Below are positions 251 through 33,900 of a DNA stretch of 64,000 bases, piece after piece (the first letter of the stretch is position 1; every line of letters begins with the position of its first letter). The stretch is from Lamellibrachia satsuma (taxonomy: Eukaryota; Annelida; Polychaeta; Sabellida; Siboglinidae). Below the pieces are notes generated by a model. It saw only the letters and a list, made by a program, of their open reading frames with translations. It was not told where the DNA came from and searched no databases. Position numbers and translations under genes: made by a program. The stretch covers positions 848,501-912,500 of the forward strand of contig BSQZ01000105.1 of the NCBI GenBank assembly GCA_033239005.1, written 5' to 3'.

Positions 251-466
251 AAAGAGATTATTAGTGCTGAATTCACTGCAAAAAGCCCAGGTAAACTTGT
301 TGGTGGATATCGCTACAAACCAGTAGAACCATATCTGTTGCCCAGTGGATTCGAGGGTACCCTCCTGGTGGAGAATCTCTCAGATGGTCATGTGACACTT
401 GATGTGACAAGTCGACAAGTTCAAGTGAAGGTCAACGTTGGTGGAGGAGTGCTTCGTCTGGTATCA
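251..466 (+). CDS. B3GALNT2: B3GALNT2 exon a (first in window)
   Basis: Acceptor tttcttacttacag ends at 250 and donor gtgagt starts at 467; 72 codons, phase 0 on both sides. It encodes the segment with LLPSGFEGT and [12 protein letters not shown], which matches the stem/early catalytic region of B3GALNT2. The ATG at 233 lies in the preceding intron and is not taken as a start. Confidence 0.85.
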
Positions 467-4232: not shown

Positions 4233-4288
<56 letters not shown>

Positions 4289-4821
4289 TGTATATATATA
4301 TTTACATACATCCGAATATCCATCCATATATATATATTAAGTGTACATGCCCTAATTAACGTACACCCCCTTTTTTAATCAGCGGGATCCATAATTATTG
4401 TAATTTGACTAATTATTGTACTTTGACTAACTAATTTTGACATTATTGTCTAGAGACAAAAATGTTGGTGTACGCTTATAAGAACAGATTCCTTGACATT
4501 TATTTAAGAAAAATATACAAAAGTGACATGTTACCAGGTTTGTTTTTAAGTTACCGTATTCAACCTATTAAGCGTACATGCCCTAATTAGCGTACACCCA
4601 CTTTTTTAAACAGGATCCATAATATTGTAATTTGACTAGTGTGGAACAACTGAAAACTGTCTCCATCTGGTGTCGAATGGTTGGCACCACTTTTAACTTG
4701 TTCTACGATAGTCACCAAATAACACCACTAGTGTTAAACAGTTGGCACCACTTTTAAGTTGATATTTGTATATATGTAAATATATATATATATATATTTA
4801 CATACATACAAATATCCATCC

Positions 4822-4853
<32 letters not shown>

Positions 4854-6415: not shown

Positions 6416-7310
6416 TCTACTCCGACAGACGTGGAAACACTAGCTCCAGTATGGGGACCCATGTGGGTGCTCCTGATCTACTCCGACAGACGTGGAAACA
6501 CTAGCTCCAGTATGGGGACCCATGTGGGTGCTCCTGATCTACTCAGACAGACGTGGAAACACTAGCTCCAGTATGGGGACCCATGTGGGTGCTCCTGATC
6601 TACTCCAACAGATGTGGAAACATCAGCTCTAGTGTGGGGACCCATGTGGGTGCTCCTGATCTACTCCAACAGATGTGGAAACATCAGCTCCAGTGTAGGG
6701 ACCCATGTGGGTGCTCCTGATCTACTCCAACAGATGTGGAAACATCAGCTCCAGTGTGAGGACCCATGTGGATGCTCCTGATCTACTCCAACAGACGTGG
6801 AAACATCAGCTCCAGTGTGGGGACCCATGTGGTTGCTCCTGATCTACTCCGACAGATGTGGAAACACTAGCTCCAGTGTAGGGACCCATGTGGGTGCTCC
6901 TGATCTACTCCAACAGACGTGGAAACACTAGCTCCAATATGGGGACCCATGTGGGTGCTCCTGATCTACTCCAACAGACGTGGAAACACTAGCTCCAGTA
7001 TGGGGACCCATGTGGGTGCTCCTGATCTACTCCAACAGACGTGGAAACACTAGCTCCAGTATGGGGACCCATGTGGGTGCTCCTGATCTACTCCAACAGA
7101 TGTGGAAACATCAGCTCCAGTGTGGGGACCCATGTGGGTGCTCTTGATCTATTCCGACAGACGTGGAAACATCAGCTCCAGTGTGGGGACCCATGTGGGT
7201 GCTCCTGATCTACTCTGACAGATGTGGAAACATCAGCTCCAGTGTAGGGACCCATGTGGTTGTTCCTGATCTAGTCCGACAGACATGGAAACATCAGCTC
7301 CAGTGTAGTG
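6349..7310 (+). repeat. 61-bp minisatellite amplifying the end of the coding sequence, about 16 copies
   Basis: Unit begins gctcctgatctactcc, continues through acgtggaaacac and ends ggacccatgtgggt. Copy 1 (6349 onward) is coding; the others form 3' UTR or downstream DNA. Variants fall in two classes (catcagctcc and cactagctcc), spread in blocks along the array. Confidence 0.93.
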
Positions 7311-9479: not shown

Positions 9480-9790
9480 CACTCAGTAGTTTAAGTCACC
9501 TATATACTACCAAAATATAATAAACACATTGAATGACCAATCCTAATGTGAATTATTCAAGTTTAAACTAGTTCTGACCACTTTTTGTGATTTCACATTT
9601 TCACAATAATACTTATATGTACTAATTTATTTCTAACTAAATGTACCCCTCTGTTGGTCACAACATTATTGTAATCACAGTCGCGCTGTAAGTCACCTAC
9701 ATTACCAACAAAATAAAGATACTGAAAGACCAATCCTAACGAGAATTATTCAAGTTTAAACCAGTTCTGGCCAGTTTTTTACATGGCGTC
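9480..9790 (-). repeat. ~200-bp duplication of the FANCM 3' end
   Basis: The block accaatcctaa...gaattattcaagtttaaa followed by ccagttctggcc appears at about 9690-9775, where it is the end of the FANCM coding sequence and 3' UTR. It appears again, diverged, at about 9497-9590. The distal copy has in-frame stops and is not coding. Confidence 0.75.
9626..9631 (-). promoter_or_regulatory. Candidate FANCM polyadenylation signal
   Basis: AATAAA on the - strand, about 105 nt past the FANCM stop codon. Confidence 0.45.
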
Positions 9791-9883
9791 ATTTGGATAT
9801 CAAACTTGTGTTTCACAAACTTGCGAATCTCTTCGGCTTTTGACTGTGAGACGAGGCTGTTCCGGCTGACCGATGCAGGGGAA
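9736..9883 (-). CDS. FANCM: FANCM exon 26 (terminal)
   Basis: Encodes [20 protein letters not shown], the conserved second hairpin of the (HhH)2 domain, and stops at TAG 9736-9738. Phase 2 in. The acceptor is duplicated: an 18-bp unit (ttcccattt plus cttacag) occurs twice, ending at 9884 and 9902. Using the upstream copy would add six residues (SHFPYS) in frame. I chose the downstream copy arbitrarily. Confidence 0.9.
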
Positions 9884-12800
9884 CTGTAAGGGAAATGGGA
9901 ACTGTAAGAGAAATGGGAACACGAACAGCCGGAAACAGAGATTAGTAAATACACTGAAACTGGGATTAAATATTGCAATTTAAAAATCACTTTTGAAATG
10001 TCTTGAATTTATTAAAGGATCCATCCTCAATTAGATTCCATCTTAGAATCGTCTCGCAAAACAAAAAACCTACCTTCCTGGGCAGATAGTATCCACTAAA
10101 ACATCCTAGCTCGTTTTTGCAAATGTGTTATTTAGTTTTGGTGAAATCATTGGACAAACTGTTACTATTTTAATTATTTTTGACCGGATCCAGTCAAAAT
10201 TTGGCAAAAAAGGTGCAAAAATGGTGCAGCTCTATATACTATGACACGTTTATTCACACTTTTACAATTCTTTTGATGATTTCAACAAAAGTAAGCTCTC
10301 TGTCATTAAACCTACTGTGTTACTTAAACTACAGATCTGAACATAAATGAACCTGATCGGCAATTGGCTAAATTAATTGAGGAATGAGTTTGAAGACAGC
10401 CATAGTGTTTTCCTGGGCCTGACACTAGACTGACTGCTGGCCTACTAACCTGTGCAGAAACCTGCTGAGGGTGTTGTATGATGACAGGGCACTGACCGCG
10501 GCTGCACTGGTCATCTTGGGCAGAGACAGGTAAAACTCCAACACCTGAGGAACATGGAGTATGCACCTGGATTAGCACAAAACCTGCTGCTGAAGCGGCT
10601 CCAAGAAAGACAAGGCCTGCTGCTGGAGCGGCTCCAAGAAAGACAAGGCCTGCTGCTGGAGCGGCTCCAAGAAAGACAAGGCCTGCTGCTGGAGCGGCTC
10701 CAAGAAAGACAAGGCCTGCTGCTGGAGCGGCTCCAAGAAAGACAAGGCCTGCTGCTGGAGCGGCTCCAAGAAAGACAAGGCCTGCTGCTGGAGCGGCTCC
10801 AAGAAAGACAAGGCCTGCTGCTGGAGCGGCTCCAAGAAAGACAAGGCCTGCTGCTGGAGCGGCTCCAAGAAAGACAAGGCCTGCTGCTGGAGCGGCTCCA
10901 AGAAAGACAAGGCAAGAATAAACTGGGATTTTCTGTAACAGTGTTAAATATACAATGTATGATCATAAACTCATGTTATGTAGTATAAACTTTATAAATT
11001 CTAAGATCTTCACGTCCAAATGTGTTTTACTGAACCAATTTAAAACACATAATTTGACTGTTATATGTTTATGTATATCGACCTTGTCATTCAGCCGAAT
11101 GAACTGAAGCAAAGTGAGGTGAAAAAAATTTCCCAAGTTTTGCACAGGCACCAGGTGGACAAGAAACACAGTCCCTTCAATCAACAGTCGTGTGTTCTAA
11201 CTGCAGAGCTACCACACCCCACATTTGCCCCACATAACCGAGCGACCATACCCCACATGGTGACCATTCTGACCTGTTCCTGACCAGTGACCAGTGACGT
11301 CCTCTCCAACCTCAGCGCGACACTTTTCTTGTCTTCAGAACGACACAGCTCAGACAGCAAGTCGGCTGTCTCATCTAAAAGTATCAGATTTTAAATAAAC
11401 GGCCAAAGGAAAATGTCAAACATACAACAAAACAATTTTAAATACAATTCTGTATTGATGCTACAAACAATAGTATTGTGTTTCCACAATATGGTATATT
11501 ATGAAGGGTTAGACGATAGAACAGAACTTTATTACACAATTCGCACAATTATTACAGTTTGATATTTGGACAAAATTAAACTGCAGTGTCACTCAGAAGA
11601 TTCTCTTAACTTAACAGCGTTTATATCGTAAAGTACCTGGAGTACAGATACTTGCTATCGGGTGCATTGCCATGATTCTGTGCAATAGTAAGCAAGAAAA
11701 ATAATAAAATGGGTTTCTTTATGGTGGCAGAGTTTGATTTCAAGCGATACAATCTAAACTATATAGAATGCTAATAAGGCAGGTTAACTTAAGGCAAACA
11801 GTAAAATAAACAATAGAAATCATTCTATTTAATAATACAGTGCAAATTAAATAATGCCAATTATTATAAAAATAAGCGGCTTCTCCACCTTGACATTCTG
11901 AGAAGAGGATCTTGACATGAGACTGCGCGAGTGTGGCTAGCATCCTCTCTACCTCACGGCTCTTTAACCTGGCAATACACACAACAATGACCAAGTCAGA
12001 GTTACAGTGATCCATCCATATACTGCTTTAAACTTCTATAGGGAGTTATTGCTGTAGACGCTGCCTGCTTGGCAGTGATCCATCCATATACTGCTTTAAA
12101 CTTCTATAGGGAGGTATTGCTGTAGACGCTGCCTGCTTGGCAGTGATCCATCCATATACTGCTTTAAACTTCTATAGGGAGGTATTGCTGTAGACGCTGC
12201 CTGCTCGGCAGTGATCCATCCATATACTGCTTTAAACTTCTATAGGGAGGTATTGCTGTAGACGCTGCCTGCTCGGCAGTGATCCATCCATATACTGCTT
12301 TAAACTTCTATAGGGAGGTATTGCTGTAGACGCTGCCTGCTCGGCAGTGATCCATCCATATACTGCTTTAAACTTCTATAGGGAGGTATTGCCGTAGACG
12401 CTGCCTGCTCGGCAGTGATCCATCCATATACTGCTTTAAACTTCTATAGGGAGTTATTGCCGTAGACGCTGCCTGCTCGGCAGTGATCCATCCATATACT
12501 GCTTTAAACTTCTATAGGGAGTTATTGCCGTAGACGCTGCCTGCTCGGCAGTGATCCATCCATATACTGCTTTAAACTTCTATAGGGAGGTATTGCCGTA
12601 GACGCTGCCTGCTCGGCACCTCTCACACGGCTGATCGGGAAGCACCTCTAGTCGTGGGAGCTAGAATCAGTGGGTTCGAAATAGAGACCACCACTGTGTG
12701 AATTCATGGTTACACATTTACCCCGTGTTGGATTTTTTACTTAGACACCAGGTAGAAGGGACCAACAGTGTTTAGTGTCTCTTCCGAAAGATACAGGGGT

Positions 12801-15800
12801 GAACGAAATTGCCCAAGTTTCTAAACAGAAGCAGGTGGGTTACAACCCCGATCCACCTGACTAACAGTCTGGTACTCTGGTCAAGTCAGGATAACACTGA
12901 TCAAGTCAGGCTTATCAAGTTGAGCTTATTAATATTAGGTTGAACATACAGTGTCAACAGAGTTGAGCTGGATGCATGAAAAGTGTTACTCAGGAAAGTT
13001 TAAGATCAGTCTCTATTTATGTCAAATGCTTCTTCAGGGTCTAACTGGCCCAGTCTACGGTGACTTGTCATGTTGGTGGTTGTTACGTGACAGCAGTTAA
13101 ACGACAGGGTCATGACAGCTGCATTGATACTCTGAAAGGTACAGTTGCACCTTGTTATTACGCGCCCCGTTATTACACGGATTCAGCTATAACATGGTCG
13201 GTCGTGGACCCTGATTTTCTGCTGCCAGGGGAAAATGCCAAATGGGCCTGCTTAAACCTACTCAGAATTGCTTTGACAATTCTCAAGAAACATTAGGTGA
13301 ACAATGTCAATGAACGAGTATCAATGTGTTGTTTGTTTTGTGCTGCCGCCGACATCAATCTGACAATCGCTGTCACTGGCACTGTCACTGTCACTGGCTT
13401 CACTTCAACGGCTTGTATATTGCAATCGAGATTCACATATACGCCTCGTGTAAGAATCAGATAAACAGTTTTAAATGCATTTAGCATGCAATACCAACAT
13501 AACACTTGAGTGAAATGACATGCTTCTATTACATCGTAAATTTAATCGTTTTCGTAACGCAATACCAACATGCCAAATTCCAAACCAAAGGCACCATCGC
13601 ATTGGTGCGGGAAAATACGCATTCGTCACCCGCATATGGAACAACGAATCGATGTTAAGTGGTGCATAATAAATTTATGCTTCGGTCGAGATCGGTTGAA
13701 AGACGAAGTGAAACAATTATAAATTCTACCTATTGTCATTTTCTGTGTTTTATCAGCTTCATACTACGTTTGTCAAATCATATACATTTTCGGCTGCTCA
13801 GATACAGGTTATCATTTTTGATTCGTACGCCTGTTGGTCCAGTACATCATCATCGTAGTAGATCTATTCCATAACGGCATACGTACATGTGTTTTATTCA
13901 GTTCAAGAATCAACAGGGTGTGACATTTAAAAATAATACACGTTGATGCTAGTAGACCCCTTTTTTAATAAGTTCCATAAACTGCATGTTGGCGTATAAG
14001 ACAGTGATGCTAGCACACAGGGCTTTGACAGCATTCATGGACTTGGCGCAGTGGGTAGCGATCGCTGTTGTGTAGTAGTTCCCTGGTGGCAGATATGGGA
14101 ACACCTAACGCGCCTCGCGTACATTGCGGTCCGAAATCGTGAACCTTGTCCCGAGGCTCGACTATATCTTAAACTCTTTTCAATATGAATGTCACAGAGT
14201 CTTACATACATGCTGATATGACGTCTTGTTTTACACAATGTGTACACATAAAATTATTGGTAACATCTGCAAATATGGACACCTACAGTGGCTTGTGGAT
14301 GGTCTGGTCACTATGACGACCCCGTCTGTCTGTCTCCACGATCAAACATGGCCGCTCGTACGTCTGACACAGCGACTGTATGCGATCTATAAGCTTAGGC
14401 TTGTTGGTGCCATTTGTAAAATCTGAAACAATAGTGACGAAAAAGAAAGCTATCATTAAAAGTAAACAACTACACTTATCTATCACGTGGAATGAAAAAA
14501 ATTAAATATTACTACGTTTTTTTTAACAGGATTTGATACTGTCAAATACTAGTACTTTAAATATGTTTTTACAAATGCATAGGGACAAAGTTGTGCTGTA
14601 AAAATAGGTAAATATGGAAACATGAGCTATGAAAAACACAAACATACAAAATGATAATAAAACATCGTTACAAGAGTAATTAAAAACTCCCGAATATATA
14701 ATGTGTTAATAGCCTAAGTACCAGTAATATGTGCAGTCGGTTTAATAAAAAAGTGCATATTTCTGTTAAGATCAACGAAAGAATTTACCTTGAGTGTTAG
14801 ATCGGGTAACTTACAAAAGTGTGAATAGCTTTGTGTCATAGTATATAGAGCTAGGCCACTTTTGCCCTTTTCTCACCAAATTTTAACTGGATCTGGTCAA
14901 AACTAATTTATCCACCGGGATAATTGTTTGCCTGATGATTTCACCAAAATTGTTAATTGTGGAGGAATTTCACAACCACAACTACAACACTTGCTACTGT
15001 GTCTGGAAAGAGGCGTATAACACCACTGACCTGAAAGCAGCTTCCTCTCAACAGCCATTCTTGCACTGACAATGTAGTCACATGACTCAAGCTGCCTCAC
15101 TATGGGATGTAGGTCGTGTTTCAGACGTAGACTTGACAATAGATCCTGCATGAGAAAACCCTTTCATGATCTGTTTGTTTGCAATATTATAACTCAATAA
15201 TTAGAACAAGAGTTAACTATGATATCTGTCTAAACATCATGTACTACAAACCAGCTGACTGGTTTTAATTCTTACCATTGAAGTCAACATAATTTGCATA
15301 TAAAATCTAGTTTCATACATTTTTATTATTTTGTTTTCCTCAACAGATAGGGTGTTGAAAAATCAGAACAAGGAAAGTGTATTTTTGTGTGTTAAAAGTT
15401 AACTCAATTTTTCTGGAACGCATTCAGCCATACTGCAATTACTGCACGAAGACGATTTGTTCACGTATCGTATCACGTCACGTATCCATCACTGTCTCAT
15501 AAATGAGATTACCTGGGCACAGTTGACTTCTCTTGAGTCGACAAACACCACCAGTTTCCCTCTCTTCTCAGGCAAGCCTGTCTACAGAAACATTGGTATA
15601 ATTACAACGAACATAAAACGGAAAGGAAAGGTACATGTGCCCAAGTAGGAACATGTGCCCAAGTAGGAACATGTGCCCAAGTAGGAACATGTGCCCAAGT
15701 AGGAACATGCAGTAGCTCAGGACAATCTGTTTGGCGAGTTTGAACACTTTCAGATGTCTATTACATTGACACATTAAATTAGCTCATGAGAGACCCTCGA

Positions 15801-18800
15801 CTATTATGACCAATGATCGCTATCAACTCATTTTACAGTTCTTACTGCTGAGTAGTCTACAACGCAGTCACTTCTCTCCATAATGCCTACACATAGGTTT
15901 CACTGTTAAGTTAAATCCTTTCAAGGCCGCTTAGGCCCATAAAACCAGTTGACCAGCAGCAAGGGTATTTGAACCCCATTCCTCTTCAGTCTTCTACTCT
16001 TCAACTGTGGTAATGTGCCCTGCTAAGGTTTCATATAGACCCGGACATGACATTTATGCCAGACGGCAGGTCAGGGGTCCATAAACAAGACTGGACGCTG
16101 TGTAGTCGCTGAAAGCAGCCTTCGTTTGACCACTGTCAAATAGCGATTGTGTCAAATGCGTGCAAGTGCCCATGTTTGGTTTGGTTAACTTCAGTAAATG
16201 TAAAGTTACCTGGCAAACAGCATTCCTTCATAACTCACTCCTTTCTCGCCTTTTAGAATTACTCTAGATGGCACAAAAAACGGGGAAGTGCGCATTGACA
16301 AAGACAATACCAGTTACCTTTACAGTTACGCTGCATCCACAGTACCTACTGCATGTCTTAGTAGATTATTCTACTCTGCATTTCTATCACACACACACAA
16401 ACATCATCTTCGAACAGCAACCTCCTCTTAAAGGTCAAGGGAGGGAACAGAATGTAGGGAGCGCGATGATGCACAACCGAGAGAGAAATGTCAGGATGAT
16501 GACAAGAAGCTGAGGAGGACAATGACCTTGAGGAGAACTCCATGAAGATGATCAACCAGGTGAATATGTGTCCCTCAAAGTGGTCGACCTTGACAAGGCC
16601 ATTCAGTCAGAGGAGAACGGGAAAGAACCTCCAAACAACTTCAGGAAATTTATATCTGAGTAGGGCCTACTTTGTGTAACTGGAGGTTGATGAGCTGCTG
16701 AACATTATCTTATGTGGCCCATGCCAGGAGTTCGACACTTTGATCATGTCCATAAAGATAGCCAGCAGCACCAGCAATTTGCACAACATAACCAGCAAGA
16801 AGGGCACCTTCGTGTTGCATGGCAACAGCATCCATACTAGATGTAAACGCCAAAACATCCCACTCCTTCATCACGAGAATGTTTCGTGCACAGAACGTTG
16901 CTCGCAGCAGCAAGGGGATGCTCAAACAAGTCACGAGAATGTTTCGTGCACAGAACGTTGCTCGCAGCAGCAAGGGGATGCTCAAACAAGTCACGAGAAT
17001 GTTTCGTGCGCAGAACGTTGCTCGAATCAGCAAGGGGATGCTCAAACACGTGGTTTTCGGCATCAACAAGAATTACAACATCGAGGACATAATGATGGTG
17101 GGACACATTGAGTTTGCTTTCTTCAAGAGTGAAGTAGATACGGCACCAGGAGGGACTACAATTCTCTGATCCCTGCCATAATTAAGGTGTTAAGAAATGA
17201 TAAATTTTGTAAGTAAGCCTACACGCCCACCTACTCGAAACTGGTGGAACTGTTGCTCCGTCTGCCCGTCACGGTTTGCTCTGTTGAAAGATTATGTTCA
17301 GGTCTTACTACTTACTTATGTTGCACCCTGGTTGGTGCACATGGCCGCCATTTTCAGAACTAGTACGGATCAAGTCTTACAACAATCATGAGATCATAAT
17401 CGTGATGCCATCTGTCACTTGAACAAGCACGTTACCGACTCTAGAAACATGTCCATTGAGCCAGTTCATCGAGTTCTGTGACACTAGAAAGCAGATCTGC
17501 GTGCATAGCAAACTTACATGATATACATATCTTACGTAGATATTCTCCACAGATAAATGTTTTCAATAAGAATTCTTTTTTGTTAGTTCAATGTTTATGT
17601 TTGTGTCTAGAAGTGTACAGCTTTGTCATTAGCAATTGTACATTTCCCCCTCCTATTCTGACAACTCTGGTACCCACTGAACGTACCCCCTTAAAAAAGA
17701 CCCCCAAAAAGTAGCGGCCCTGACACAATCAGCGGCCTAACACAATCAGCGGCCTAACACAATCAGCGGCCCATTAGGGATTGGATGCTGGACGGTTAAC
17801 GGTTGGGTTTACGATGCTAAAGCTGTACTCATTCAAAATATTATCTGTCCGCTACACTTCTTAGAGATGTCTGTATCGCAATATACCAACAGTGCCAGAA
17901 TAAACAACGTTGACCAAAGATGTGAGGTGCAGTAGCTAGGCGATTAGAGGGCCAAACTGTCAATCAAGATGTGTCTATGCCAGGGGAAGTAAAACACAAC
18001 AGGTAAATATGTAGCCTGTCATTGACTCACATTGACTCTAAACCAGAGCTAAATATGGCCTATAATGTAAGAAGACTTACTGAAACCATGCTGTGGTTGC
18101 TGGCTGCAGACATCCTGCTGTCACATGATACCTTCTGTTGGTCAGCAGCAATCACATGACTTGCACTCATGTGCTTTGCAGTCACATGACTTGTAGTCAG
18201 ACGATGACTTCCTGACAAAAACAAGTGCAATGTTTTTCCAATTCAGCATGCAGCCAACAAGATGCCGCAATATTTATGAAGACTGCTGGAGCTAACTGTA
18301 AGCCTTTAAGCTTATCTACATCCACTAACATGCAATCAGTACAGTTCTCAATTCCAATCTTAGGTAACGCGTGGAATGTTATACAACACTTGTTGGAAAA
18401 CATGAAAGATTAATAGCAGTCATGCATGACCTGTTTTTATAGATACTACCCTATTACTGTACTTTATTAAAACAACAGTTTGTGCTGGGTCTTTTGCAAA
18501 TCTATATATTATTACCTTGATTTCCAGCATCCGAATGTACATTCGCCGTATGTGATGTCATACCTTTGTCGGACATATTCCCGTGAGACATCAAAGGCAA
18601 TCGTGTCTCAAAATCATCATTCCAATTCTGACCATTCCAAGTGCACCCAGAGGTCGTCATGGTTGGTTGACTTTTACCCACAGAAGAGTTACATGTAGTC
18701 AGTTTTGTCTTGCATGGATGCATATCACCATCAAGAACACTACAGAGTCCTGTATTTTTCATGCATGACTGACTCCTGTCCACAACAGAACTGTTAAGTG

Positions 18801-21800
18801 TCATCATGGATGGCCGATTCCGGCATGTTTCGTCATCTTGGCAATCCTCATCACTAGAACTCGCAAGCTGCACGATTCTTTTCCTTTTTTTCCTTTTTAC
18901 TGTGCTGCCATCATTGGCTGAAGTTGTTGCTTCTGAAGGATGCCGTCTTCCCCGTGGTGGCGTAAACAAGTCATCTTCAGCAGACTCAATCTTTGTTACT
19001 TCAGCACCTGATCCTGGTACAAAAAGTACAAATCCTGTTACTTAGGTATTTTGCCTTCAGCCTCTGATCCTGGTAAAAAAGGACAAATCCAGTTACTTTG
19101 ATATTTTATCTTCATGTGAACATAAATCAGTGTTAGCTGTTAAATGTTTCGCCATTAGGATAATTTTTTTTCAATTGGGAAAAAAATTAAATGGAGTATA
19201 GTTAAACCACTTCAGATTTGTAGACAAATGTAGATTTTTCTGGAAATAAAATATTCCCGTTTTTTATTTTTTCATTCAAGCTGTATTAATTACACAAAAT
19301 ATTTTAAACAAATACGTCACCATTTTAGTTAATAAGTTAAAAAAGTTATCCAAGAAACACCAGAGCATACGATTTTCAGTCTCTTATTTTCAGACAATCT
19401 ATCATTAAGTTGGGGTTCATCTATTATAATATCTGATGAAAAGGATGTCATAAAAACTTTGGTTTTTAGAGGGGACAACAAACCAAATTCCTCGAGGTCA
19501 TCGCTGTCGACACAGAAGCTGTCTTGCAGATAGCACGACTCCTCCATCTGCTCCTGGGAGAACACGTTTTGGTCATCTGTGTGTGACCGATAGCTGAGCT
19601 TGTATCTTGCTCCCATTGGTCCATGCCAACCAGGGCTGCGCACAGACTGCAGGTACATGGCTCTTGAGTCTACAACATGCCCAGTGTCCCTGTTACGCAA
19701 ACTCTATAGCTCAGTATCCAATCCTTGGTATTGCTCAAAGTGCTTTACACTTCACCCGCCAGCAGACCTGTTCATTCCAACGCTATCTCGACTTCTCTGG
19801 GAAGCATTCAGCCATGTTGCAGTTACTGCACGAAGACTATTCGTTCACATATCCACCTCTGTCTGTAGCCAGGTACTCATTTATACAGCTGAGTGAACTG
19901 TGGCAAAGTGGGGTGAACGAAATTGCCAAAGCTTCGAAATGGTTCAAACCCAGGTCAGCGCATGAACAAAAACAAACAGGGTGACATTAACATGTGGCGA
20001 GATTGGGATGACTCACCAATGCCCTGAGATTGGGATGAGTCACCAACGCCCTGAGATTAGGTTGACTCACAGATGCCCTGAGATTAGGTTGACTCACTGA
20101 CGCCCTGAGATTAGGTTGACTCACAGATGCCCTGAGATTGGGATGACTCACTGATGCCCTGAGATTGGGGTGATTCACTGATACCCTGAGATTGGGGTGA
20201 TTCACCAACGCTCTGAGATTGGGTTGACTGACCAATGCCCTGAGATTGAGTTGACTCACCAATGCTGAGATTGGGTTGACTCACCAATACCCTGAGATCG
20301 GGGTGACTCACCTATACCCTGAGATTGGATTGACTCACTAGTGCCCTGAGACTGGGTTGACTCAACAACGCCCTGAGATTGGGTTGACTCACCAATGCCG
20401 AGATTGGGTTGACTCACCAATACCCTGAGATCGGGGTGACTCACCAATACCCTGAGATTGGATTGACTCATTAGTGCCCTGAGACTGGGTTGACTCACCA
20501 ACGCCCTGAGATTGGGTTGACTCAACAATGCCGAGATTGGGTTGACTCACCAATACTCTGAGATCGGGGTGACTCACCAATGCCATGAGATTGGGTTGAC
20601 TCACCAATGCCCTGAGATTGGATTGACTCACCAGTGCCCTGAGATTGGGTTGACTCACCAACACCCTGAGATTGGGTTGACTCACCAATGCCGAGATTGG
20701 GTTGACTCACCAATACCCTGAGATCGGGGTGACTCACCAATGCCATGAGATTGGGTTGACTCACCAATGCCATGAGATCAGGTTGACTCACCAATACCCT
20801 GAGATTGGATTGACTCACCAGTGCCCTGAGACTGGGTTGACCCACCAACGCCCTGAGATTGGGGTGCCTCACCAACACCCTGAAATAGGGGTGTCTCACC
20901 AACATCCTGAGACTGGGTAACGCACTGACCCCTGAGATAGGGGTGACTCACCGATGCCCTGAGCCTGTGTTTGAGACAACTGGGTGGCGTCATCAATGAA
21001 GCTGGCTTCCATCAGGTCAAAGTTGGCGTCTTCCTCATCACCTGACTCATCTCCAGAGCCAGACACTTCAGCCTCTTCATCCAGGAACCAATTGTTACGT
21101 GGCTTCCCCTGCAGCAGTATGAATTTATTATTATTAATATCAATTAAATTTATAAAGTGCCTCATATCTGAGACCAGCCCATTCATAGGCACGTACAAAA
21201 CATACATGCAATCATAAAAATAATAAATATATTAAAGTTAAAAATACATAATAAAAAAAATATATATATAATAAAAATAAATATTTAATTATAGTAAATA
21301 AATAGTTATAATAAATAGATCAATAATTATAGTAATTAAATCAATAAAAAAATTAAAATATAAATACATGTTCATAAAAAGTAATATTGTAGTGCCCTAA
21401 TTCACAGCCATTCCTCAGTGGATGTAACCACACCTGACCTTTTCAGTAAGTTCTTAAACGTAGTCAGTGTATCTGCATGTCCAGCAGTGAGTTCCACACA
21501 TTTACCAAGAGCAAAGGCAAACATGATTAAGCAATGCTACAGAAATTGTAATTATTTATAAATTTTTGCATAGGTACTTATTACTGGGAAGTCTTCCCTA
21601 GTCGGTGTTATTCAACAAAAACTGCTGTGTGTATTTTATTCAAATTTGGCAGACTTGTGTTTCAGTAATTACTCAAGCCGAGTGAGGCCACTCAGATTTC
21701 AGATACTGCTTCAACAGAAGTCACCTCAAGTTGTCGACTGACGATTACATTACTACTAATATATAATATTCACCTTTATCTTTCATGATCATTTATCTTC

Positions 21801-24800
21801 CTTAATACTAGATAATATTCACCTTTATTTTTGATGGTTTGACAGCGGCATCTTTTGAGAAAGTCTTCTTGTTTTGGTGCAAAGTTCTCATCACTGTAAT
21901 AATGTAATTATGAACATACATTACTACAATTCACCAGTTTAACATAAGCACTTGAACAAATTCTCTATGCTATAACAACTCTTCTTGTCGAACATTAACT
22001 GATTTCATTCAATTGTATCCTTATTGCTGTGCAAATGTTGCATTCAAATAGCAAGACTCAAAGCAATTTCAATTCTGATACCAGCTGGACTCAATTTTGC
22101 ACAGCTCGAGTGACATAAAATGGGATTGCAAGAAAGTGTGCAAGTTTCTAACATCACCGACCAACAAAGCCCAACAATCTGCCTGTGTGTGGGTGAGCCT
22201 TACTCATCAGAGTCTTACAAGATGGTTTGCTGCATAAACTATTATGTACTGATTCAAAAAGCAAGAATCTCCCTGAATGTGAAAGTGACTGTCAACTGGT
22301 AGGGTCTATTTGGACGAGCTGCCTAGTAGCAACTTGTGGACTTCAGTGCAGTGCCCAAACGACACAGACATTAGCATATATAGTATTGGGTGTTGTTTAT
22401 AGTAAGTATATGCTTTAATCTTGAGCAATGTCTGATTATTGAGCTGTAAAATGTTAGTGCTCGGGCATCTACATGTTATTTACATTTGTGTTTGTACATG
22501 AGAGTATTTGCGTGAAGTCATTTGTGGTATTACTTTAGATGGTGTCAGAAGTGGGATAGTGTTAAATGGTGACAGAAGTGGGATAACATTAAATGGTGTC
22601 AGAAGTGGGATAGCGGTAAATGGTATCAGAAGTGGGATAGCGTTAAATGGTGTCAGAAGTGGGATAACATTAAATGGTGTTAGAAGTGGCACGATGTCAT
22701 ACAAAGTCAGAAAGCATTACAGTAACCACTGCAATTGTTTTAGATGGTTAATAAAACACAGAAACTGCTGTCTTACCATTCTGAGGTTTGATGAAGTCAT
22801 CGTCTCTGTGTCCTGTCTTTCTGCCTGTCCACGAAGCATCTGAATTGCTCACGTTTCTGCTCTTTGATGGGTGAATCTTCACCCATGGCTTAGTTGTTTT
22901 ATTAGCAGCAAAAGAACTTTCTGTTAAACTCCTTCTACATCCTAGTTCTGATTGTTTTTGTAAGTTCCTTCTGACAGCTGGCTCTTCCATTGTCCTCTCT
23001 CTGAAAGCTACCTCACGCAGTGACTTCCCTCTAAATACTGGCTGTTGTACTGACCTCCCTCTTTCCGATGGCTGCTCAGACTTTTCGGTGAATCGGACAT
23101 TGTGACTCTGTTTGAGATTCAACCGAAGTCTTGACCCCACAGACCTGTCACTGCTGTTGGAGAACATGGTGGAGTCATCCATTCCTGGCCTGGCATGTGT
23201 CTCGGTGTGTGTCAGTACAGACTGGTCCTTCTGGTTCCTGCTGTCTAGTGGGTCATACATTGAGGAATTCAAACCATATGGTTTATTCGTAGATGGTACA
23301 CTTGATGTGGTCACCAATGGCTTGCTTACAAATGTAGGTGGCACAATAAGTTTGGCTGTGTCAGAACGATTGATGTCACTTTTAAATTTCACAGGCGAAT
23401 TAGTATGCAGTTTCATTGCATTGATGACACGCTCTGACGGTGACACACTGACATGTCCTGATGATACTGCAGTGTCGTAATGCTGGGAAGAGGTGACACA
23501 AGTAGCAACACCTTCTGTTCTTGACTGTTCGCCAGCACCATTGTCATGGCAATGACTGTCGTCACCTGGGATCACGTCCTCATCAGATTCAGCCATGTCG
23601 AAGCCAAGGTCAAAGTCCAATTCATCAAAACTGTCATCATCGAGAAGGTTGAAGTTCGGCAGGTCAAGGACATTTGCAGAAGTCACCATTCTGACAGGGT
23701 CTTTGCCGGTGGTTTTAATGCAACTTTCTGCATCTTTAGGACTATCCTCTTCATCGAAAAGTGAAAAGTTTGGCAAGTCAAGGTCATCTGCAGATGTTGT
23801 TGTTTTAATGATGACGTTCCTGGGGGTTTCAATACAATCATCTGTTGTCTTGTCGCTGTCCTCATCAAACAGCGTCGGTGACACAAATTCACGATTTGGT
23901 GACAACTCTGTATTCCTCCGTGGAGTCTCATGTAGCTCCACTGCTCTGTTGGAGACGTCCGATTCACTGACTCTTCCCGTGGCAGATCCACTCCATGTTG
24001 CGGCAGCCTTGGAAATCCCAAGCCTGGGAGACTTAATTCCCATGTCAGTGTCCCTCATCCTTTTAGAGAGTGGGGACTTAAACACATGTTCATATGGAGT
24101 TTTGACGGATTTGCCTTTTGGGGATTTAAAGAGACATCTTGTGGGAGGTTTCAGATTTATGGAAGGCTTCACGATTTTGCCATTTGGTGACGGAGACACA
24201 AAACTTTCGTCAACAGATGCCAGAGCTTGAGTGAAGCTTAAGTGCGAAGTGTCCAAGCAAACATCCATGTTAGTGTCCAAGTCAGAATAACCATCAGCCC
24301 ATGACGTGACAGTGGACTGGGCTAGAGGAACAGGTGATGTATTGCCACGAGATTCTGAGTGGACATTTGCATTTATATTCTTCTCAGATGTTCCAGACTT
24401 CTCTGAATTGCATCCTGCTGATGGATGCGCCTTTGAAAGCTCCTGGTTTTCTGTTGGCAGTCCACACTTAAGTCCTGAATCAGGTCTTACTGCCTCATTA
24501 AACAGATCATTCTCCTGTCTATGCCTGCTTCTGTCCTTGATCACAGACGTCATATCACAATCTTGTTTCTGTTTCGCATACTCCACGTCACTAACAATGT
24601 TTTCGCTTTCATATTTCCCTTGAGTTTTGTTGAGATGGTGCTCATCATGTGATTCATTCATAGGAGGTAGTTGGTGTACTCTGTCTGACCGTTCTGACTC
24701 ATCCAGTCCTCTGGACATTGTTTGTCCTGTCCGTGGTGTATCCACACTAAAAGGTGCAGTTATTCCCACTCCTTGTGTGGAAACGGACATTTTTGGAGCC

Positions 24801-27800
24801 TTTCTCACTGACTTTCCAGAACATAACAGATCACTTGTTGGAGAACTGACATCTTTCTTGTTCTTGAAGCCAATCCCTCCGCTGACTTCCACCAGACGTT
24901 TCTCCTTCTCCCAGCCATCAATTAACATGAGGATGTCAACCGGCGATATGCACCTCTTTGCGTCCAGTTCCTGCATTACAGCAGCAAGCTCCTCTTCTGA
25001 TGGTGGTTCTGGAACAGATCCTATGTAGCACCAGGAGTGACCCTGAACAGATCCCATGATGCAACGGGACTGACCTTGGCTGCAGTCAGCAACTCCTGGT
25101 AGAGATTCTGCTGAAGCATAGAAAGGAAACAAATCGTTTGTATTGTCACAATTAGCTGCAGATTTCACATGGTTGTAACTTTGTAAGTTTGACAACCAGG
25201 AGTTGCAGTCTCTAAAAGAACTTGCATGGCCAGGAGGATCATGGTCATCACTGTTATCTTCGTCTTTCTCTAAATCCATCATTTTGTCTTCAACATCTTC
25301 ACTCTCACAGATAATGTCCACTTTGGGTGACTCAGTCTGACCCACTGGGTGATGGCTGGAGTTATCTTCCTCCACACACAGGAGATCACTACTAGGAGGT
25401 CTTGTAGGAGAGACTGTCGTAAACAATTTTGGGCCACTGATTCTGTCATTAGATGCTGAAGCAGAGCACTTGGACGTCTTCTTCTTCTCTTTGGCCGTTT
25501 TGACACATTTCTCTGGAAGTGCTGACCGCTTCCTTGTATCAACTGGATGGATGGTCTTTCTTGACCTTGCCTTCTTTTTGCTTTGTTTGTCTCCTGAAAT
25601 ACATGATAATGACTATGTACGTACATACACATGTACAAACAGATATGCTTAAATGGATGGAGGAGAGTGGGCATGCAGATGGACGTGCGGACAGATGTAT
25701 GTATGTGCACACATACAAAGTGACTTGTCTAATGGGCAATTTAAAACTAAAGATCATTTTCTGGTAATGGCTTCCTGTAGATTGGCTGGATCCCAGTCAT
25801 GGCCCACAAGGTGTTGTGATTTGTGTTATTTTACAAACACACTCACAGACACACGCATGCGTGTGTTTGTGAGTGTGTTTGTGCACAATCTGTTGTCATA
25901 AAAACAAACTTTATCAAGATTGTAGAAACCAATTTTTAACTGATCTTCTCTCAGTTAAAAAATTCTTTAGAATTTTGGATTTAAATTGTAGTTGGTCCAC
26001 AAAGACGCACAATAAAAACTACACAAGTCATTGGGTCAACATTTTTTAAGGACGCACAAGTCACCTGATTTGCTTGAAATCATGGTACTGAAGTCTGGGA
26101 GATCAGATTCATCATCAGTGGCAAGGTCGTCCTCGCTCGAACTAAAACCTGCAAGAGCAAATATAACTTTATTCAGACGTACCCGAGGTATACACATATG
26201 ATAGTGTAGAAAAATGACTCAAATACCAATGCTGAATTTAGTAAATTACTAGACAGGCTTGGGTAAATAAAGGCTAGGAAAAATAAGGATGACAAAACAA
26301 ATTTGTGCAAATGAACAGTTATTGAACAGGGAATAATAGATATAAGGTGGGGTATTGGAAAACTTTAAATTTTTATATATTGTGGTTATTTTGGTTACGA
26401 TATAAGATGACTTAACTTGTTGTGTTATATTACATTTTATATTTGCCTGACTGATATTTATATTATGTAATACCTAAACAACTGTTTAAATATAAAGAAT
26501 GTGGTTTAACAACTTTAGAGACAAGGAGGTTAAGAGGAGATCAAATTGAAGTTTTTAAGGTATTGAATGAATGGGTATGAAAATATTGATAGAAATATTT
26601 TTCTCACTCAAGAAAGATAGTAGAACTGGAGGACATGAGGTAACATTGGTAAAGGATCAGTGTATATTGGATATCAGGAAGTACTCGTTCTCACCGAGGA
26701 TAATAAATGAATGGAACAAATTATCTACAGATTGTGTAACTGCTAGCAGCGTGAATATGTTTAAAAGCAAAGTTGACACAGAGCGGGTTACACATAGATG
26801 AAAAATGTTGGACTCTCGATAAGCCAATGGCTTTAACAATCTTTTTATATCATGCTAAATCTTGTTAAATATGTAGAAGCAATTGTTGATTGTAAACATA
26901 GTTAACCAGAGTATTAAATATGGGAAATACAAAGACTGCTTAATTTTATGCATTAAATTAAAACTTCATCCGTCCATTGACATAAAGCACCGATAATTTA
27001 AGGACATATTGTATCACAACTTTGAAACATAACACATCAACAGTTGTATCAGTTTGTAAAAAAGGATTTTTTAATGTTTTAAATACATCTATATTGCTTG
27101 AGATTGTTATGGCTTCCTGTAATCACCATGGCTATCCAAAGACGGCAGCCGTGCATCTATAACCCAACATATTTATAACATGGAAGGATTTTGTGGCTCC
27201 CAACATCCATCATAGTGAGGCTGTGTACCGTATTTTTTTATCTAGACAATGTAACTGTTTAACACTAGTGTTGTCATTTGGTGACTAAAACAACTGAAAA
27301 GTGGTGCCAACTGTTTAACACCAGATGGCGACACTTTTCAGTTGTTCCACACTAGTCAAATTACAATATTATGGATCCTGTTTAAAAAAGTGGGTGTATG
27401 CTAATTAGGGCATGTACGCTTAATAGATTGAATACGGTAACTTAAAAACAAACCTGGCAACTTGTCACTTTTATATATTTTTTTTGACGGTCCAGCAACA
27501 TCTTCACTGTTTCTCTTTCTCTTTGTCCCAGGCTCAGTGGGCTGCAGGAATGCGTCCAGGCCTTTCTTTCGCTTTGTCAATATGACGTCCTCGTTGCACA
27601 GGTAAGACTTCATCTCTGTGTCATACATGTCTGCTCCTGATTCACCAGCAACACCTGCAAGAAGAAACCATTAATATTATTAAGATTTAGTAATAAACAA
27701 CTACACCAGTTCTGAGTCACTACGACAGGCAACTGAATCATTTTTGATATGAAATGCAATATTTTTTACGTTTTTGCATTTAGAAAAGGAGCATTAAAAA

Positions 27801-30800
27801 AATATCCAAAATGGCCAAAAGTCTGGCATCACTAGAGGATGTCACCATCCGAGGCATTATCACCTGGTGCAAATCAGGAGTGGACCATATGAAAGTCGCT
27901 GAACCACCTATGGGCAGATCACATGTAAACATGAGAAAGTGGGGTTATTAAAACGACCCTGAAACCTGTGACTGCGGCGAGATCCAGACCAGTAACCACC
28001 TACTGAATTGTTGCCATCTGGACGAACTGTGCTCCCCGGTAGATCTCACAGTAGCATCCGACACAGCATTTACGTGTGCGTGGTTTTGGAGAGACACGAT
28101 ATGATGATGGGCTTAACATATCTCCACAACACAGTGATGATACTGTGAGAAAACTAGGGCATTATGGTATTGTAGATTGAGAATTTCACATGCCCATTAT
28201 TTCAATGAACTGCATCAGATCAACGAGGTTCTGACTGCGCTGAGAGTGTCCGAGTTGACGCGTCTTCTGAAGTGTATTCTGCCACGGGGTGTATCGGTCC
28301 AATGAGAGAACATTCGACTTCTCTGGCGATGCTCCCTGCAACCAGAAACAACACTGCTACTGACCGTGGTGAAGATTATTACTTAACGATAACTGAATGA
28401 TAAATGGTTGACTGAACAAACATACGCAGGAGTGAATGGTACAAAGCAAACAAGGAATGTTGAACATGTTATACAAACCAGAGTCAGGCCAACCAAAAAC
28501 TATTTTTACTCTTTGTAGGTTTTGAATTTGACTTCTGTAACATTTAATTTTTGGACTATTATTTTATTATTCTTGTATGTATGTATAGATGTATGTTTGT
28601 ATGTATGTATGTATGCATGTATGTATGTATGTATGTATGTATGTATGTATGCATGTATGCATGTATGCATGCATGCTTGTATGCATGCTTGTATGTATGT
28701 ACGTATGTATGTATGTATGTACGTATGTATGTAGTATGCATGTATGTATGTATGTATGTATGTATGTATGTATGTATGTATGTATGTATGTATGTAGTAT
28801 GTATGTATGTATGTATGTATGTATGTATGTATGTATGTATGTATGTATGTATGTATGTATGTATGTATGTATGTATGTATGTATGTATGTATGTATGTAT
28901 GTATGTATGTATGTATGTATGTATGTAGTATGTATGTATGTATGTATGTATGTATGTATGTATGTATGTATGTATGTATGTATGTATGTATGTATGTATG
29001 TATGTATGTATGTATGTATGTATGTATGTATGTATGTATGTATGTATGTATGTATGTATGTATGTATGTATGTATGTATATATGTATGTATGTATGTTAT
29101 GCTACTCCTCCTGGATGCTTTGCATCTCGGGTGGCAAACTTTCAGGGGTTCATCTACAACCCCAAGGTTGGGTCGTCAGTTTTATTTTTTCTAAATTCAC
29201 CCTGCTATTACCCTTTCTATGAACAATTGAATTACCCTTTGTAGTTATTAAGTCGTCGTACACGACACAAACACGAGTCCACCATGAGGTCAACCATGTG
29301 GCTGGACGAAACTTTTCAATCAACGTTTCTCAACTAGCTATGTAAGCATAGACCAGCTTCTAAAGTAACTCTGTCAATCAATTCCTTCGGTAATGGCAAT
29401 GTCCAAATTAACACATCCCCAGTCGTCTTAGCCTAGCTTTGATGTTATGATGTTTACAAAAAAGCCTGTCTGGTGGTATTTATATAACATTCCATTAACC
29501 ATCACAGTAGACCATATGTGACTGCCATTCCCTGAGAGAATAAGTGCTACGACAGACCTGTCTCAGTGATTTCAGGGTCAACATGAAGGACGGAGGCATC
29601 AGAGGAACCTCCCTTGTGTCAACTTGGAGGTTCTCTGCCCAGTAAGTCTGTTCCTCCGTCGTAAGAAACCCACGGGACATGTTTGTTTTATCCACTGCAA
29701 CAGAGACCTCTCACTGTGGTCTGCCTTACAACATGTATAGAGATAAAGGCAAGTTTTTATACAGCGTGGCATCTAGTCCTTCGGACAGCTCAAAGCTGTA
29801 GACCTGTTCATTCTAACACCACCTCAACTTCTCTGGGAAGCATTCAGCCATGCTGTAATTTCTACACAAGAACTATTCATTCAGATATATCCACCACGGA
29901 CTATAGTCAGGTACTCATTTATACAGCTGAGTGAACTGAGACAACGTGGAGCGAACGAAATTGCCCAACCTTCGAAACGGCAGCAATAGGATTAAAAAAA
30001 CAGTCCTCCCAATTGAGAGTCCCATGTTCTAACCACTGCACCGCTGCATCCCATTAATGGTCTGATTTCTTATTGTTTTTCACAGTGGCGTTAAATCTAT
30101 TCTTTTCAATAGCTGTGTTTTCTACCATGGCAAGGATTTATTTCAAGGGGTTTCTATATAGAACAATATACATTTTACAGAAATGTTCAAAGTGATTTAC
30201 AGGGGCGCAACTTCCCGGAGGACAGCGAGGGGTCACTGTGTAAGTCCAGATTCACACTTCATCCCTGATAGACCTGTTAGTTGAATTCAAGTTCTCTGGT
30301 AAGTATTCTGCCACACTGCATTCAATCCACAAAAGCTTTCGTGCATTCGTGCAGCACGACATCGACCAACAAATTGGACAGAAATCACTCATGTAAACTG
30401 GCCCTAAGAAAAACAATGTGATTCCCTAACAAACCAGTGGTCATGTGATGCCGTCTCTTTGTGGCCACTTTCGTCTCGTTCGGGCGAGTCTTGCCGACTT
30501 TCTGGACCTTCTCGGCGACAGTCATGTGGAGTTTGTGACAGAGCGGTGTGAAGCACTCAGGCACCATCCTCTGACTGTGGGGGTAGAGCACCAGTGACTT
30601 GGCACTGTTGGCGATCGCTCGGTCAATGCTTCTCTTGTTGTACTGACTCTGGTTGTAAACCTGCAACATAAAAGGGGCTTTCTCAACATCACCCTTGATT
30701 GATTGATTGATTGAGTTTACTCAGTAACATCATACATATGAATAACAGTGTAAAACAGTATCATATATAAAATAATACTGAGGATAACACACAAAAGCAC

Positions 30801-30983: not shown

Positions 30984-33900
30984 CATAAATAAGATGTTCA
31001 AACATAGCATATTTTCATCCTGAGCCACCAAAAGGCTATATAAAAGGCTTAAGTTTTAAGACTGCTTTTTAGAGCAACATTGTTTGGTGGCAAGTTATTC
31101 CAGTGGCATATGCCTGTATTAGTGCCCTGCACAGGCCAGGCTTTGGGCCCAAGCCCGACCTGCCCCAGTCCGGGCCTCTACTAAATTTCTCGGGCCGGGC
31201 CGGGCCTGGGCCTACATTTTGTGGGCCTGAGTCGGGCATAAAAAAATATTAAACATATCAGGCTTGTGCCGGGCTTGTGCTTGTGCCGGGCTTGTGCTTG
31301 TGCCGGGCCTGGACCTAATAAAATATTAATACAAAACCATTACATATTACTACTACATAGTACATACAGAATACAGATATTACAGATGCATATTTTTGGC
31401 GTGAATGCAGCCGTTTGCATAGATCTAATGGCCCCATAAGTTCACTTGGCTGGAAGTAGCCAGCCCCAAATGTTTACTTTAGACATATTTGCAGAGGCAA
31501 TGAAGCCATGATTAACCATCAACTTATCACCCTTTGACCTTACCAGTGGACATTCTATCGTCTAGGTCTTCCCTCCAAATCTTGCCTGCCTGAATGACCT
31601 GCCCACTGCCCAGTGCCCACACCAGTTGGTAGTTGGTATTTTTCAATTGTGGTAACTAGTGTCTACTGTTTAGTGTCTATCAATATTTTTTGTTAATGTT
31701 AATTAATAAAACAATACGTCTCTATTACAGTTTATTTGTGTTTCGTTTTTATTATTTTATTATAAGCTAATAGGTTCATCTTTTCTAAATTGAAATATTA
31801 ATATTAATGGATTTTTATGTTATTTAATAAAACAATACGTATGTATTACAGCTTATTTGTGTTTCATTTTTATTATAAGAACTGATAATAGTTTTATCTT
31901 TTCTAAATTCAGCAGGCCGCGGGCACGGGTTTACCCGTCTTTAGCCCACGGGTATGGGCCGGGCCTGGGCCTGAAATGTGCGGGCCAGGCCGGGCTTGGC
32001 CAACCATTAATGGGCCTAAATTCTATTTTGCGGGCCTGGGCCGGGCTAGGTTGACAAATTTTTGTGGACCTGGGCTGGGCCTGGATTCTAACTGCTAATT
32101 CCGGGCCAGGGTTGGGCTCAAATTATAGGCCCGTGCAGGGCACAAGCCCATATACAGAAACGAGCTTTGCCCAGGACAACTAGTCTTGTGCATTACCATT
32201 GATGATATTGTCCATAACTGATGATACTGTACATCACTGATGATACTGTACACCACTGATGATACTGTACTTCACTGATGATACTGTACATCACTGATGA
32301 AACTGTACACCACTGATGATACTGTACACCACTGATACCAAAAAGCAGTACAAACTAAAGAGGGGATCTGCGGTGGTTAGTGCACAGGTGCAACAACTCA
32401 CAGAAACTCATATTTTCCAGACTATTCAAAACCTTTTTAATGATAGGTAGGGCTGTCTACAGCAGCGTATAGCAGCAAATCATTGTGAGATTTTGGCTGA
32501 TTATGTTTGAAAAATATGTTGTAGGCATGTCACTGAAGAATTTTAAAATAAGTGAACATTTTCATGTTCTGACGAGTAAGCAGATAGGTGGTTGAATTAC
32601 AATAATATAAAACTAAGATCCAGATGATAACATCACTAAGTTTCCATAAAGTAAGGAGAAACATTAATAAATGGAATTTTTAATTTTCACATATTTAACA
32701 CAAAATAAAACCAAACATGTACAACAGGTAACAAAGGTACATGTTTTTTACCAGATTTAGAAAAATCTAAATTCATATTGTAAACTAAACTGCGTAATAA
32801 AAAAGTAGTAATGAAAATTTTTTTTAACCATTGACTTCCCACAATGCACATGACCTGTTCCTCGCGTCCTTCGGTGAGCAGCATGATGATACGTCCCTTG
32901 CGTTTGCGACCCGTCCTCCCCATTCGCTGCACGAGGCGTATTGGGCTCTTGTGGGCATCGAAGCATATGATCAGGTCAACATCCCCTATGTCCAAGCCCT
33001 CTTCCCCCACACAGGTCGACACGAGGGTGTTATATCCGCCCTCTCGGAACTGTTTCATCACCTACACAAGGAAAAAAGGTTTTAAATGGCAATGTGAAAT
33101 GTCTTAACTGGGAGTTGATCTTAACAGTGACTGACTTTTTTAATGCTGGTCTTAACTAGTTGGAAATTGGTCCAACTGGGGGGTGGTGCTATTATTGGAC
33201 CGTTGATAAGCCATCCTTGTTCACTATCATCTGGGCCTTTTATGCTGGATTGCACTCTTGCTAAATCTTGTTAAATATTGTTAAATCAAGTTAAAACTTT
33301 GGTTGGTCCTAACTTTGGGGTTGGTACTAACTGCATTTGGTCCTAACTGTGGGGTTGGTCGTAACTGGGGGGGCATTGGTGCTAACTGGGGGATTGGTCC
33401 CTAAAGTTGCAAAGAATAAAAAAGATTAATTGCTATATATTTGACTTTTACTACTTTAGTAAATTACTAAAACACAATCACCTATCATCAGTAAATTGAC
33501 AACACAAACATGTCTACAACCAAAACAAGGCCTTTATGAATAGACGCACCCGAATCTGTTCCTTCTGCGTGAATCCCTTGGAGCTCTTGTTGACACTCGA
33601 TTGACCAATAAAGCTGATCACCTTCACCAGGGGGCGATGCTGGTTCAACATCTCCGTGATCTCGCTGACGCTGTCTCGGTACTGGGAGAAGATCATGATT
33701 CGTGTCGATGTCGGTGTGTCACCACAGTCTGGAAACATAAAAGTCACTAATTATTATTATGAACAATTATCCAAACTAGCAAAAATGCTCAACCTTTTGG
33801 ATAGGTTAGCTGGGTAGTTTGTGACTGTCACGATAACAGTATTAAAAAGCGTTATTACATAAATATCCATTTATGCCTTGGTACTCATTACTCATGCAAG

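What the first reader, a model, noticed from the sequence alone, without database searches (positions are those of the whole stretch)
14286..15581. FANCM with an apparently intact ERCC4 nuclease active site
Seen: exon 20 ends [11 protein letters not shown], exon 21 has SCDYIV and AVERKLLS, and the codon across the exon 21/22 junction is D, giving V-D-x-R-E ... C-D ... E-R-K-x-x-S-D. Known: active XPF/MUS81/Hef nucleases use VDxRE and GDx(n)ERKx3D, and human FANCM is degenerate at both (VGGHE; ERR with E for the final D) and has no nuclease activity. Inference: this animal FANCM keeps all charged catalytic residues and differs only by G to C before the D. It may be a helicase-nuclease like archaeal Hef.
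Basis: partly seen in the sequence, partly recalled or inferred. Interest (0 to 1): 0.88.

Follow-up and report, generated by a model that had tools for sequence, protein, structure and literature searches.

The report
FANCM keeping its complete nuclease motif
This invertebrate's version of the DNA-repair protein FANCM, whose human form has lost its DNA-cutting site, still has every charged residue of the known site motif, so it could be used to test when animals lost the cutting activity; whether it cuts is not known.

Summary
A FANCM gene lies on the minus strand: 25 modelled exons, 46372 to 9736, about 2405 aa, with one unresolved junction away from the nuclease. Exons 19-21 of my model read VDSRE, CD and ERKLLSD in frame; the last D spans a junction. 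The organism is a lophotrochozoan, perhaps an annelid. Of 155 animal FANCM C-termini compared, 9 keep all eight charged residues: window, Owenia, a chiton, four lancelet records, one frog, one unnamed protein. Cys before Asp is the commonest FANCM state, and 14 of 35 active-type enzymes have Ala there, so that change alone need not kill activity. Against a working nuclease: Glu, Lys and Asp of ERKx3D change faster than the median column across animal FANCMs, and no FANCM row has both the Gly and Gln of DGRxxxQ, a second element shared by XPF, MUS81 and Hef. Complete sites are somewhat commoner than matched control columns give (P 0.02-0.12). Most likely an ordinary FANCM translocase with a probably retained, ancestral-looking site; cutting is possible but unproven (about 0.25). 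The human form VGGHE was seen only in primate-type rows.

The parts
15513..15581 (-). FANCM exon 19: start of ERCC4 domain, motif VDSRE
   Evidence: spliced model; PDB match
15031..15145 (-). FANCM exon 20: CD and ERKLLS
14287..14422 (-). FANCM exon 21: last Asp of ERKx3D (split codon), rest of nuclease core; has KPKLIDR where active-type enzymes have DGRLFxQ
11889..11968 (-). FANCM exon 22: end of ERCC4 fold
   Evidence: C-terminal alignment with FANCM proteins
11274..11374 (-). FANCM exon 23: linker to (HhH)2
10450..10544 (-). FANCM exon 24: (HhH)2, first part
9736..9883 (-). FANCM exon 25: (HhH)2, last part, and stop codon
45670..46372 (-). FANCM exon 1: N-terminus (start codon chosen by likeness to FANCM), helicase Walker A
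44957..45129 (-). FANCM exon 2: DEAH box
44247..44324 (-). FANCM exon 3: helicase
41085..41243 (-). FANCM exon 4: helicase
40437..40568 (-). FANCM exon 5: helicase insert region
39162..39382 (-). FANCM exon 6: helicase insert region
37417..37544 (-). FANCM exon 7
33550..33728 (-). FANCM exon 8: helicase C
32855..33061 (-). FANCM exon 9: helicase C
30435..30660 (-). FANCM exon 10
29558..29694 (-). FANCM exon 11: MHF-binding region
28194..28335 (-). FANCM exon 12: MHF-binding region; GC donor proposed
27454..27654 (-). FANCM exon 13
22777..25593 (-). FANCM exon 14: long central region (2817 bases)
   Evidence: open frame and splice sites; its junction to exon 15 is out of phase in my model
20952..21108 (-). 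FANCM exon 15
19484..19669 (-). FANCM exon 16
18516..19013 (-). FANCM exon 17
   Evidence: open frame and splice phase only
18081..18211 (-). FANCM exon 18
   Evidence: open frame and splice phase only

Best explanation
A true FANCM orthologue, most likely working as FANCM is known to work: an ATP-driven fork and branch translocase (N-terminal DEAH helicase) held at DNA by MHF and by its C-terminal ERCC4-(HhH)2 module, probably paired with FAAP24. The nuclease-fold core keeps every charged residue of the XPF/Hef motif, probably because this lineage never lost them; the site probably still binds a metal ion. I think the domain mainly serves DNA binding and dimerisation, with no cutting or only weak cutting. 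Shown: gene, domains, residues, distribution. Inferred: translocase activity, metal binding, partner, lack of strong cutting, ancestral origin.
For: Helicase, MHF-binding and ERCC4 Pfam matches; best PDB relative of the nuclease exons is human FANCM; helicase region 67% identical to Lingula FANCM. VDSRE/CD/ERKx3D complete in 9 of 155 rows from separate groups. D, E of VDxRE, D of CD and R of ERK are slow columns (19, 6, 6 and 5 of 85 columns slower), but E, K and D of ERKx3D are not (55, 68, 50 of 85 slower), as expected if fold and binding, not catalysis, are what most animals keep. No FANCM row of 154 has both the Gly and the Gln of DGRxxxQ. The human FANCM pseudonuclease held calcium in its active site in one crystal, and a newer structure shows 5 bp of duplex DNA bound by the domain (PMC12263834, passages).
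Against: Complete sites are commoner than independent drift predicts (8 rows against 0.50 expected, P 0.005; 5 lineages, P 0.010) and somewhat commoner than matched control columns give (P 0.020-0.039 for rows, 0.040-0.123 for lineages), which hints that some lineages keep the set for a reason. I know of no assay of any of these proteins. FAAP24 was not looked for in this species.
Confidence: 0.6

Rival explanations
1. Active helicase-nuclease like archaeal Hef: the translocase remodels the fork and the ERCC4 site cuts one strand, as heterodimer with FAAP24 or as homodimer.
For: All eight charged residues present. In XPF a Xenopus D668A mutant is called catalytically inactive and R670S (human R689S) cuts poorly (PMC5510004, passages); by numbering these are the D and R of VDxRE. 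Ala in place of the Gly before Asp in 14 of 35 active-type rows, 11 of those 14 in ORFs that also carry Walker and DEAH motifs. Same order helicase - long linker - nuclease as Hef (PMC5717133, passages). Excess of complete sites.
Against: DGRxxxQ absent; Lys, Glu and last Asp of ERKx3D poorly constrained across animal FANCMs; human FANCM-FAAP24 has no detectable nuclease activity and its paired nuclease domains bound no DNA in one study (PMC3905867, passages), though a later structure shows duplex binding (PMC12263834, passages).
Confidence: 0.25
2. Chance: residues were lost or drifting in the ancestors and this lineage came back to the full set without function.
For: The deviating positions flip often (at least 12 kept/lost changes for K, 11 for E, 10 for D of ERKx3D over 60 rows), and matched control sets of 8 columns give as many full lineages in 4-12% of draws.
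Against: Owenia, a chiton and lancelets carry the same full set, so retention is simpler (inference); under independent drift the window's row is full in 1.2% of simulations.
Confidence: 0.12
3. Exons with the motif are not in the mature message (alternative or mis-modelled splicing).
For: The public Capitella gene model appears to jump from the central region to the last HhH exon and has no ERCC4 match.
Against: Window junctions from exon 18 to 25 agree in phase with AG/GT borders, and the joined C-terminus aligns over 86-95% of its length with the 52 proteins found.
Confidence: 0.03

Closest known systems
Human FANCM (PDB 4bxo, 4m6w, 9hjo)
   Same: CD before the second acidic site and ERCC4-type sequence; helicase and (HhH)2 parts by likeness to a recalled human sequence
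   Different: Human has VGGHE and ERRx3E; the window has VDSRE and ERKx3D
Owenia fusiformis, Liolophura sinensis and Branchiostoma FANCM (P0082, P0056, P0087-P0090)
   Same: Same complete residue set VDSRE / CD / ERKx3D
   Different: x3 residues and flanks differ; no assay known to me
Archaeal Hef
   Same: Helicase-linker-nuclease order; VDSRE, D, ERKx3D
   Different: Hef-type rows have G or A before D and mostly DGRLFxQ (DGGLFDQ in P. furiosus); the window has C and KPKLIDR; Hef is a tested nuclease (PMC5717133, passages)
XPF and MUS81
   Same: Charged residues of the nuclease motif (XPF whole motif read; MUS81 from ERK onward)
   Different: Human and A. pernix XPF chains have Gly before Asp and NGRLYSQ / DGRLFEQ; MUS81 has DGRFREQ

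Membership tests
FANCM | SF2 DEAH helicase close to animal FANCM | tested here: met
   DEAD and Helicase_C; up to 69% identity to lophotrochozoan FANCM
FANCM | MHF-binding region | tested here: met
   PF16783 at 1.5e-17
FANCM | C-terminal ERCC4 plus (HhH)2 | tested here: met
   PF02732 at 1e-14; (HhH)2 by alignment with FANCM proteins over 86-95% of the C-terminus; Pfam itself gave no HhH match
FANCM | FAAP24 partner | not tested
   not searched for; whole-genome search did not complete
Catalytic XPF/MUS81/Hef nucleases | VDxRE, Asp, ERKx3D | tested here: met
Catalytic XPF/MUS81/Hef nucleases | Gly before the Asp (GD) | tested here: not met
   Cys here; but 14 of 35 active-type rows have Ala, so the feature is not strict
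Catalytic XPF/MUS81/Hef nucleases | D/N-G-R-x3-Q element (my observation, role unknown) | tested here: not met
   G in 33, R in 34 and Q in 34 of 35 active-type rows; Pro, Lys and Arg here; MUS81 chains have it too
Catalytic XPF/MUS81/Hef nucleases | Metal-dependent cutting | not testable with these tools
   needs an assay

The most novel reading that the evidence does not exclude
Some living animals (this lophotrochozoan, Owenia, a chiton, lancelets) still use FANCM as a one-chain helicase-nuclease of the Hef type, and the nuclease was lost many times elsewhere, with VDxRE itself breaking down in primates.
Probability: 0.25. Interest if true: 0.85.

Novelty: new variant of a known kind. Interest (0 to 1): 0.5.

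Why it matters
FANCM is called catalytically inactive or a pseudonuclease on the strength of human and vertebrate proteins (PMC3905867 and PMC12263834, passages read). Animals that keep the whole motif make it testable when, and how often, the Hef-type cutting activity was lost, and give natural proteins for the test. If one cuts, crosslink and fork repair in those animals would have a nuclease that vertebrates are thought to lack.

Tried and rejected
Literature: FANCM with 'nuclease domain', 'degenerate', 'invertebrate' gave 0 papers, FANCM with 'invertebrates' and 'ERCC4 domain' 0, FANCM with pseudonuclease 1. FANCM+ERCC4+Hef (31 papers, 25 listed), FANCM+evolution+FAAP24+nuclease (83, 15 listed), FANCM+annelid (3) and FANCM+nuclease activity+amphioxus (2) were seen as listings; none named an intact animal FANCM site in title or abstract start. 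I read passages of five papers (PMC3905867, PMC12263834, PMC11061109, PMC6320978, PMC5510004) and of PMC5717133; none whole. So I found no report, in a library that lacks most subscription papers. PMC6320978 calls both FANCM and FAAP24 non-catalytic (passages). Enzlin and Scharer 2002 is not held. The early-diverging-fungi paper has no 'ERCC4' in its main text.

More relatives of the window's own phylum: a third protein search with the Owenia C-terminus (E up to 1e-8) gave 8 proteins, no new annelid; 3 of those 8 (P0164-P0166) are not in my counts. Net charge of the nuclease core did not separate groups (window 0, P. furiosus Hef 0, human-like -2, Lingula +4, archaeal-type mean -3.7) and is not used. 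Independent-pair tests among E, K and D of ERKx3D had too few pairs to decide. Structure prediction was not run: the spliced protein is not read letter for letter from the DNA, which that tool asks for, and it returns no coordinates.

Full report
The thing. The minus strand holds one long gene. A guide search (human FANCM pieces recalled by me) found helicase, central and C-terminal pieces of FANCM in order from 45.8 kb down to 9.8 kb. I fixed borders by reading splice sites and assembled 25 exons, 46372-9736. The two parts either side of one junction read open for 1834 and 571 residues, 2405 in all. Flaws: the exon 14 to 15 junction is out of phase, so a small exon is missing or one border is wrong; exon 12 needs a GC donor; exons 17 and 18 rest on open frame and phase alone; the start codon was chosen by likeness. 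None touches the nuclease. Pfam finds DEAD, Helicase_C, FANCM-MHF_bd (1.5e-17) in residues 1-896 and ERCC4 (1e-14) in the last 247; the stretch between was not scanned, and no HhH model matched.

The motif. Exons 19-21 give [15 protein letters not shown] and VERKLLSD, the last Asp from a codon split G|AT. The closest solved chains are human FANCM (about 1e-16), then XPF and Hef (about 2e-6). Human has VGGHE, GCD and ERRSQSE in the same places.

The organism. A helicase tree of 67 rows (quick method, long branches present) puts the window inside a lophotrochozoan group of 32 rows (SH-aLRT 98) and next to Capitella (90, not starred), so perhaps an annelid, not settled.

How common is the full set. 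Two protein searches listed 163 different proteins (the second listed the best 120 of 1928, so this is a capped sample ranked by likeness to the window). With the window 164 were scanned; 155 had the C-terminal domain and 9 did not. All eight charged residues (D, R, E, D, E, R, K, D) are kept in 9 of 155: window, Owenia P0082, Liolophura P0056, Branchiostoma P0087-P0090, the frog Leptobrachium P0135 and unnamed P0079 (the last two with Ala for Val before the first Asp). Allowing Lys for Arg adds two sea stars. Others miss by one or two: scallops DRKx3E, sharks and coelacanth ERKx3E, Gigantopelta DRKx3D; teleosts mostly and decapod crustaceans have lost more. VGGHE occurs in two rows only, Callithrix P0159 and unnamed P0154, whose core equals the human chain; the 11 named non-primate mammal rows, four of them horses and asses, all have VDSRE (names). 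PMC3905867 says that the motif has evolved to CDXnERRX3E in vertebrate FANCM (passages); here 4 sharks, the coelacanth, 7 of 9 frogs with the motif readable and 3 of the 11 mammals keep Lys. So the human site is an extreme.

Constraint. On 60 rows of the tree, state changes were counted for 85 nuclease columns (median 12). Columns slower than each site: D of VDxRE 19, R 44, E 6, D of CD 6, E of ERK 55, R 5, K 68, last D 50. In 35 active-type rows (32 loci, P. furiosus Hef, ApXPF, human XPF) these residues do not vary where read. That set comes from one Hef-seeded scan, holds many Thermococcus loci, has two loci with bacterial titles (L020, L032), and none of the loci was assayed here; 'active-type' is by motif.

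More than drift? If the eight residues were kept or lost independently on the tree, 0.50 full rows are expected and 8 seen (P 0.005), in 5 lineages (P 0.010). A control with random sets of 8 other columns, matched for how many rows keep them, gives 2.5-3.5 full rows on average, P 0.020-0.039 for rows and 0.040-0.123 for lineages. Four of the 8 rows are lancelets; with lancelets collapsed, and P0079 and one duplicate mantis-shrimp row left out, 4 of 55 rows remain, and I did not test that set again. I call this weak evidence that the set is kept together.

The Gly to Cys change. One short row was dropped, leaving 154 FANCM rows: C 93, S 46, A 7, G 6, N 2. The 35 active-type rows have G 21, A 14. 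Eleven of the 14 Ala rows lie in ORFs that also carry Walker and DEAH motifs, one in an ORF with DEAH only, two in short ORFs with neither. Hef cuts fork DNA in work on Thermococcus kodakarensis (PMC5717133, passages); I did not read that protein's own residue.

What is missing. Active-type rows share D-G-R-L-F-x-Q after the motif (G 33, R 34, Q 34 of 35; P. furiosus has DGGLFDQ); MUS81 chains 4p0p and 2ziu show DGRFREQ, human XPF NGRLYSQ. The window has K-P-K-L-I-D-R. Of 154 FANCM rows 3 have the Gly-Arg, 16 have the Gln, none has both Gly and Gln. I do not know what this element does; its family-wide loss is my main reason for doubting strong activity.

Mechanism. By XPF work the D and R of VDxRE matter for cutting (PMC5510004, passages; positions by numbering); in ApXPF the metal is bound by the Asp of GD and the Glu of ERK (PMC3905867, passages). 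All are present here. Human FANCM, though degenerate, bound calcium at this site in one crystal, and in a newer structure the domain binds duplex DNA (PMC12263834, passages); an earlier study found no DNA binding by the paired nuclease domains (PMC3905867, passages). I therefore expect folding, dimerisation, DNA binding and probably metal binding, with cutting possible but not needed for the known FANCM role.

Verdict. Observation confirmed. Interpretation plausible, not shown. A new variant of a known kind, shared with a few other animals, and a good subject for one decisive assay.

Noticed in passing
19999-20963: A 27-bp tandem array (36 copies) begins at the end of FANCM exon 15 and repeats the exon end with its splice donor; the stretch holds 20 copies of GGTGAGT, which are all the copies of that word on the minus strand of the window.
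   Followed up: partly
37244-37430: A 28-bp array repeats the donor of FANCM exon 7 (CAGAATG|GTAAAG, 4 exact copies counting the exon's own).
   Followed up: partly
5279-5545: The likely splice acceptor of an exon of the plus-strand galactosyltransferase gene occurs 5 times at 62-bp spacing. With the two FANCM cases this suggests arrays seeded at splice sites.
   Followed up: partly
240-6418: Plus-strand pieces of a galactosyltransferase-family gene (PF01762 at 2.7e-22, exons joined by eye); its 5' end may lie outside the window.
   Followed up: partly
42786-43289: Minus-strand reverse transcriptase ORF in FANCM intron 3; another on the plus strand at 53952-54431.
   Followed up: no
33925-36289: 42 copies of a 56-bp unit in the FANCM intron between exons 7 and 8.
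   Followed up: no
P0074 (Capitella FANCM, public model): The model has no ERCC4 match yet ends in what looks like the last HhH exon: model error or real loss.
   Followed up: no
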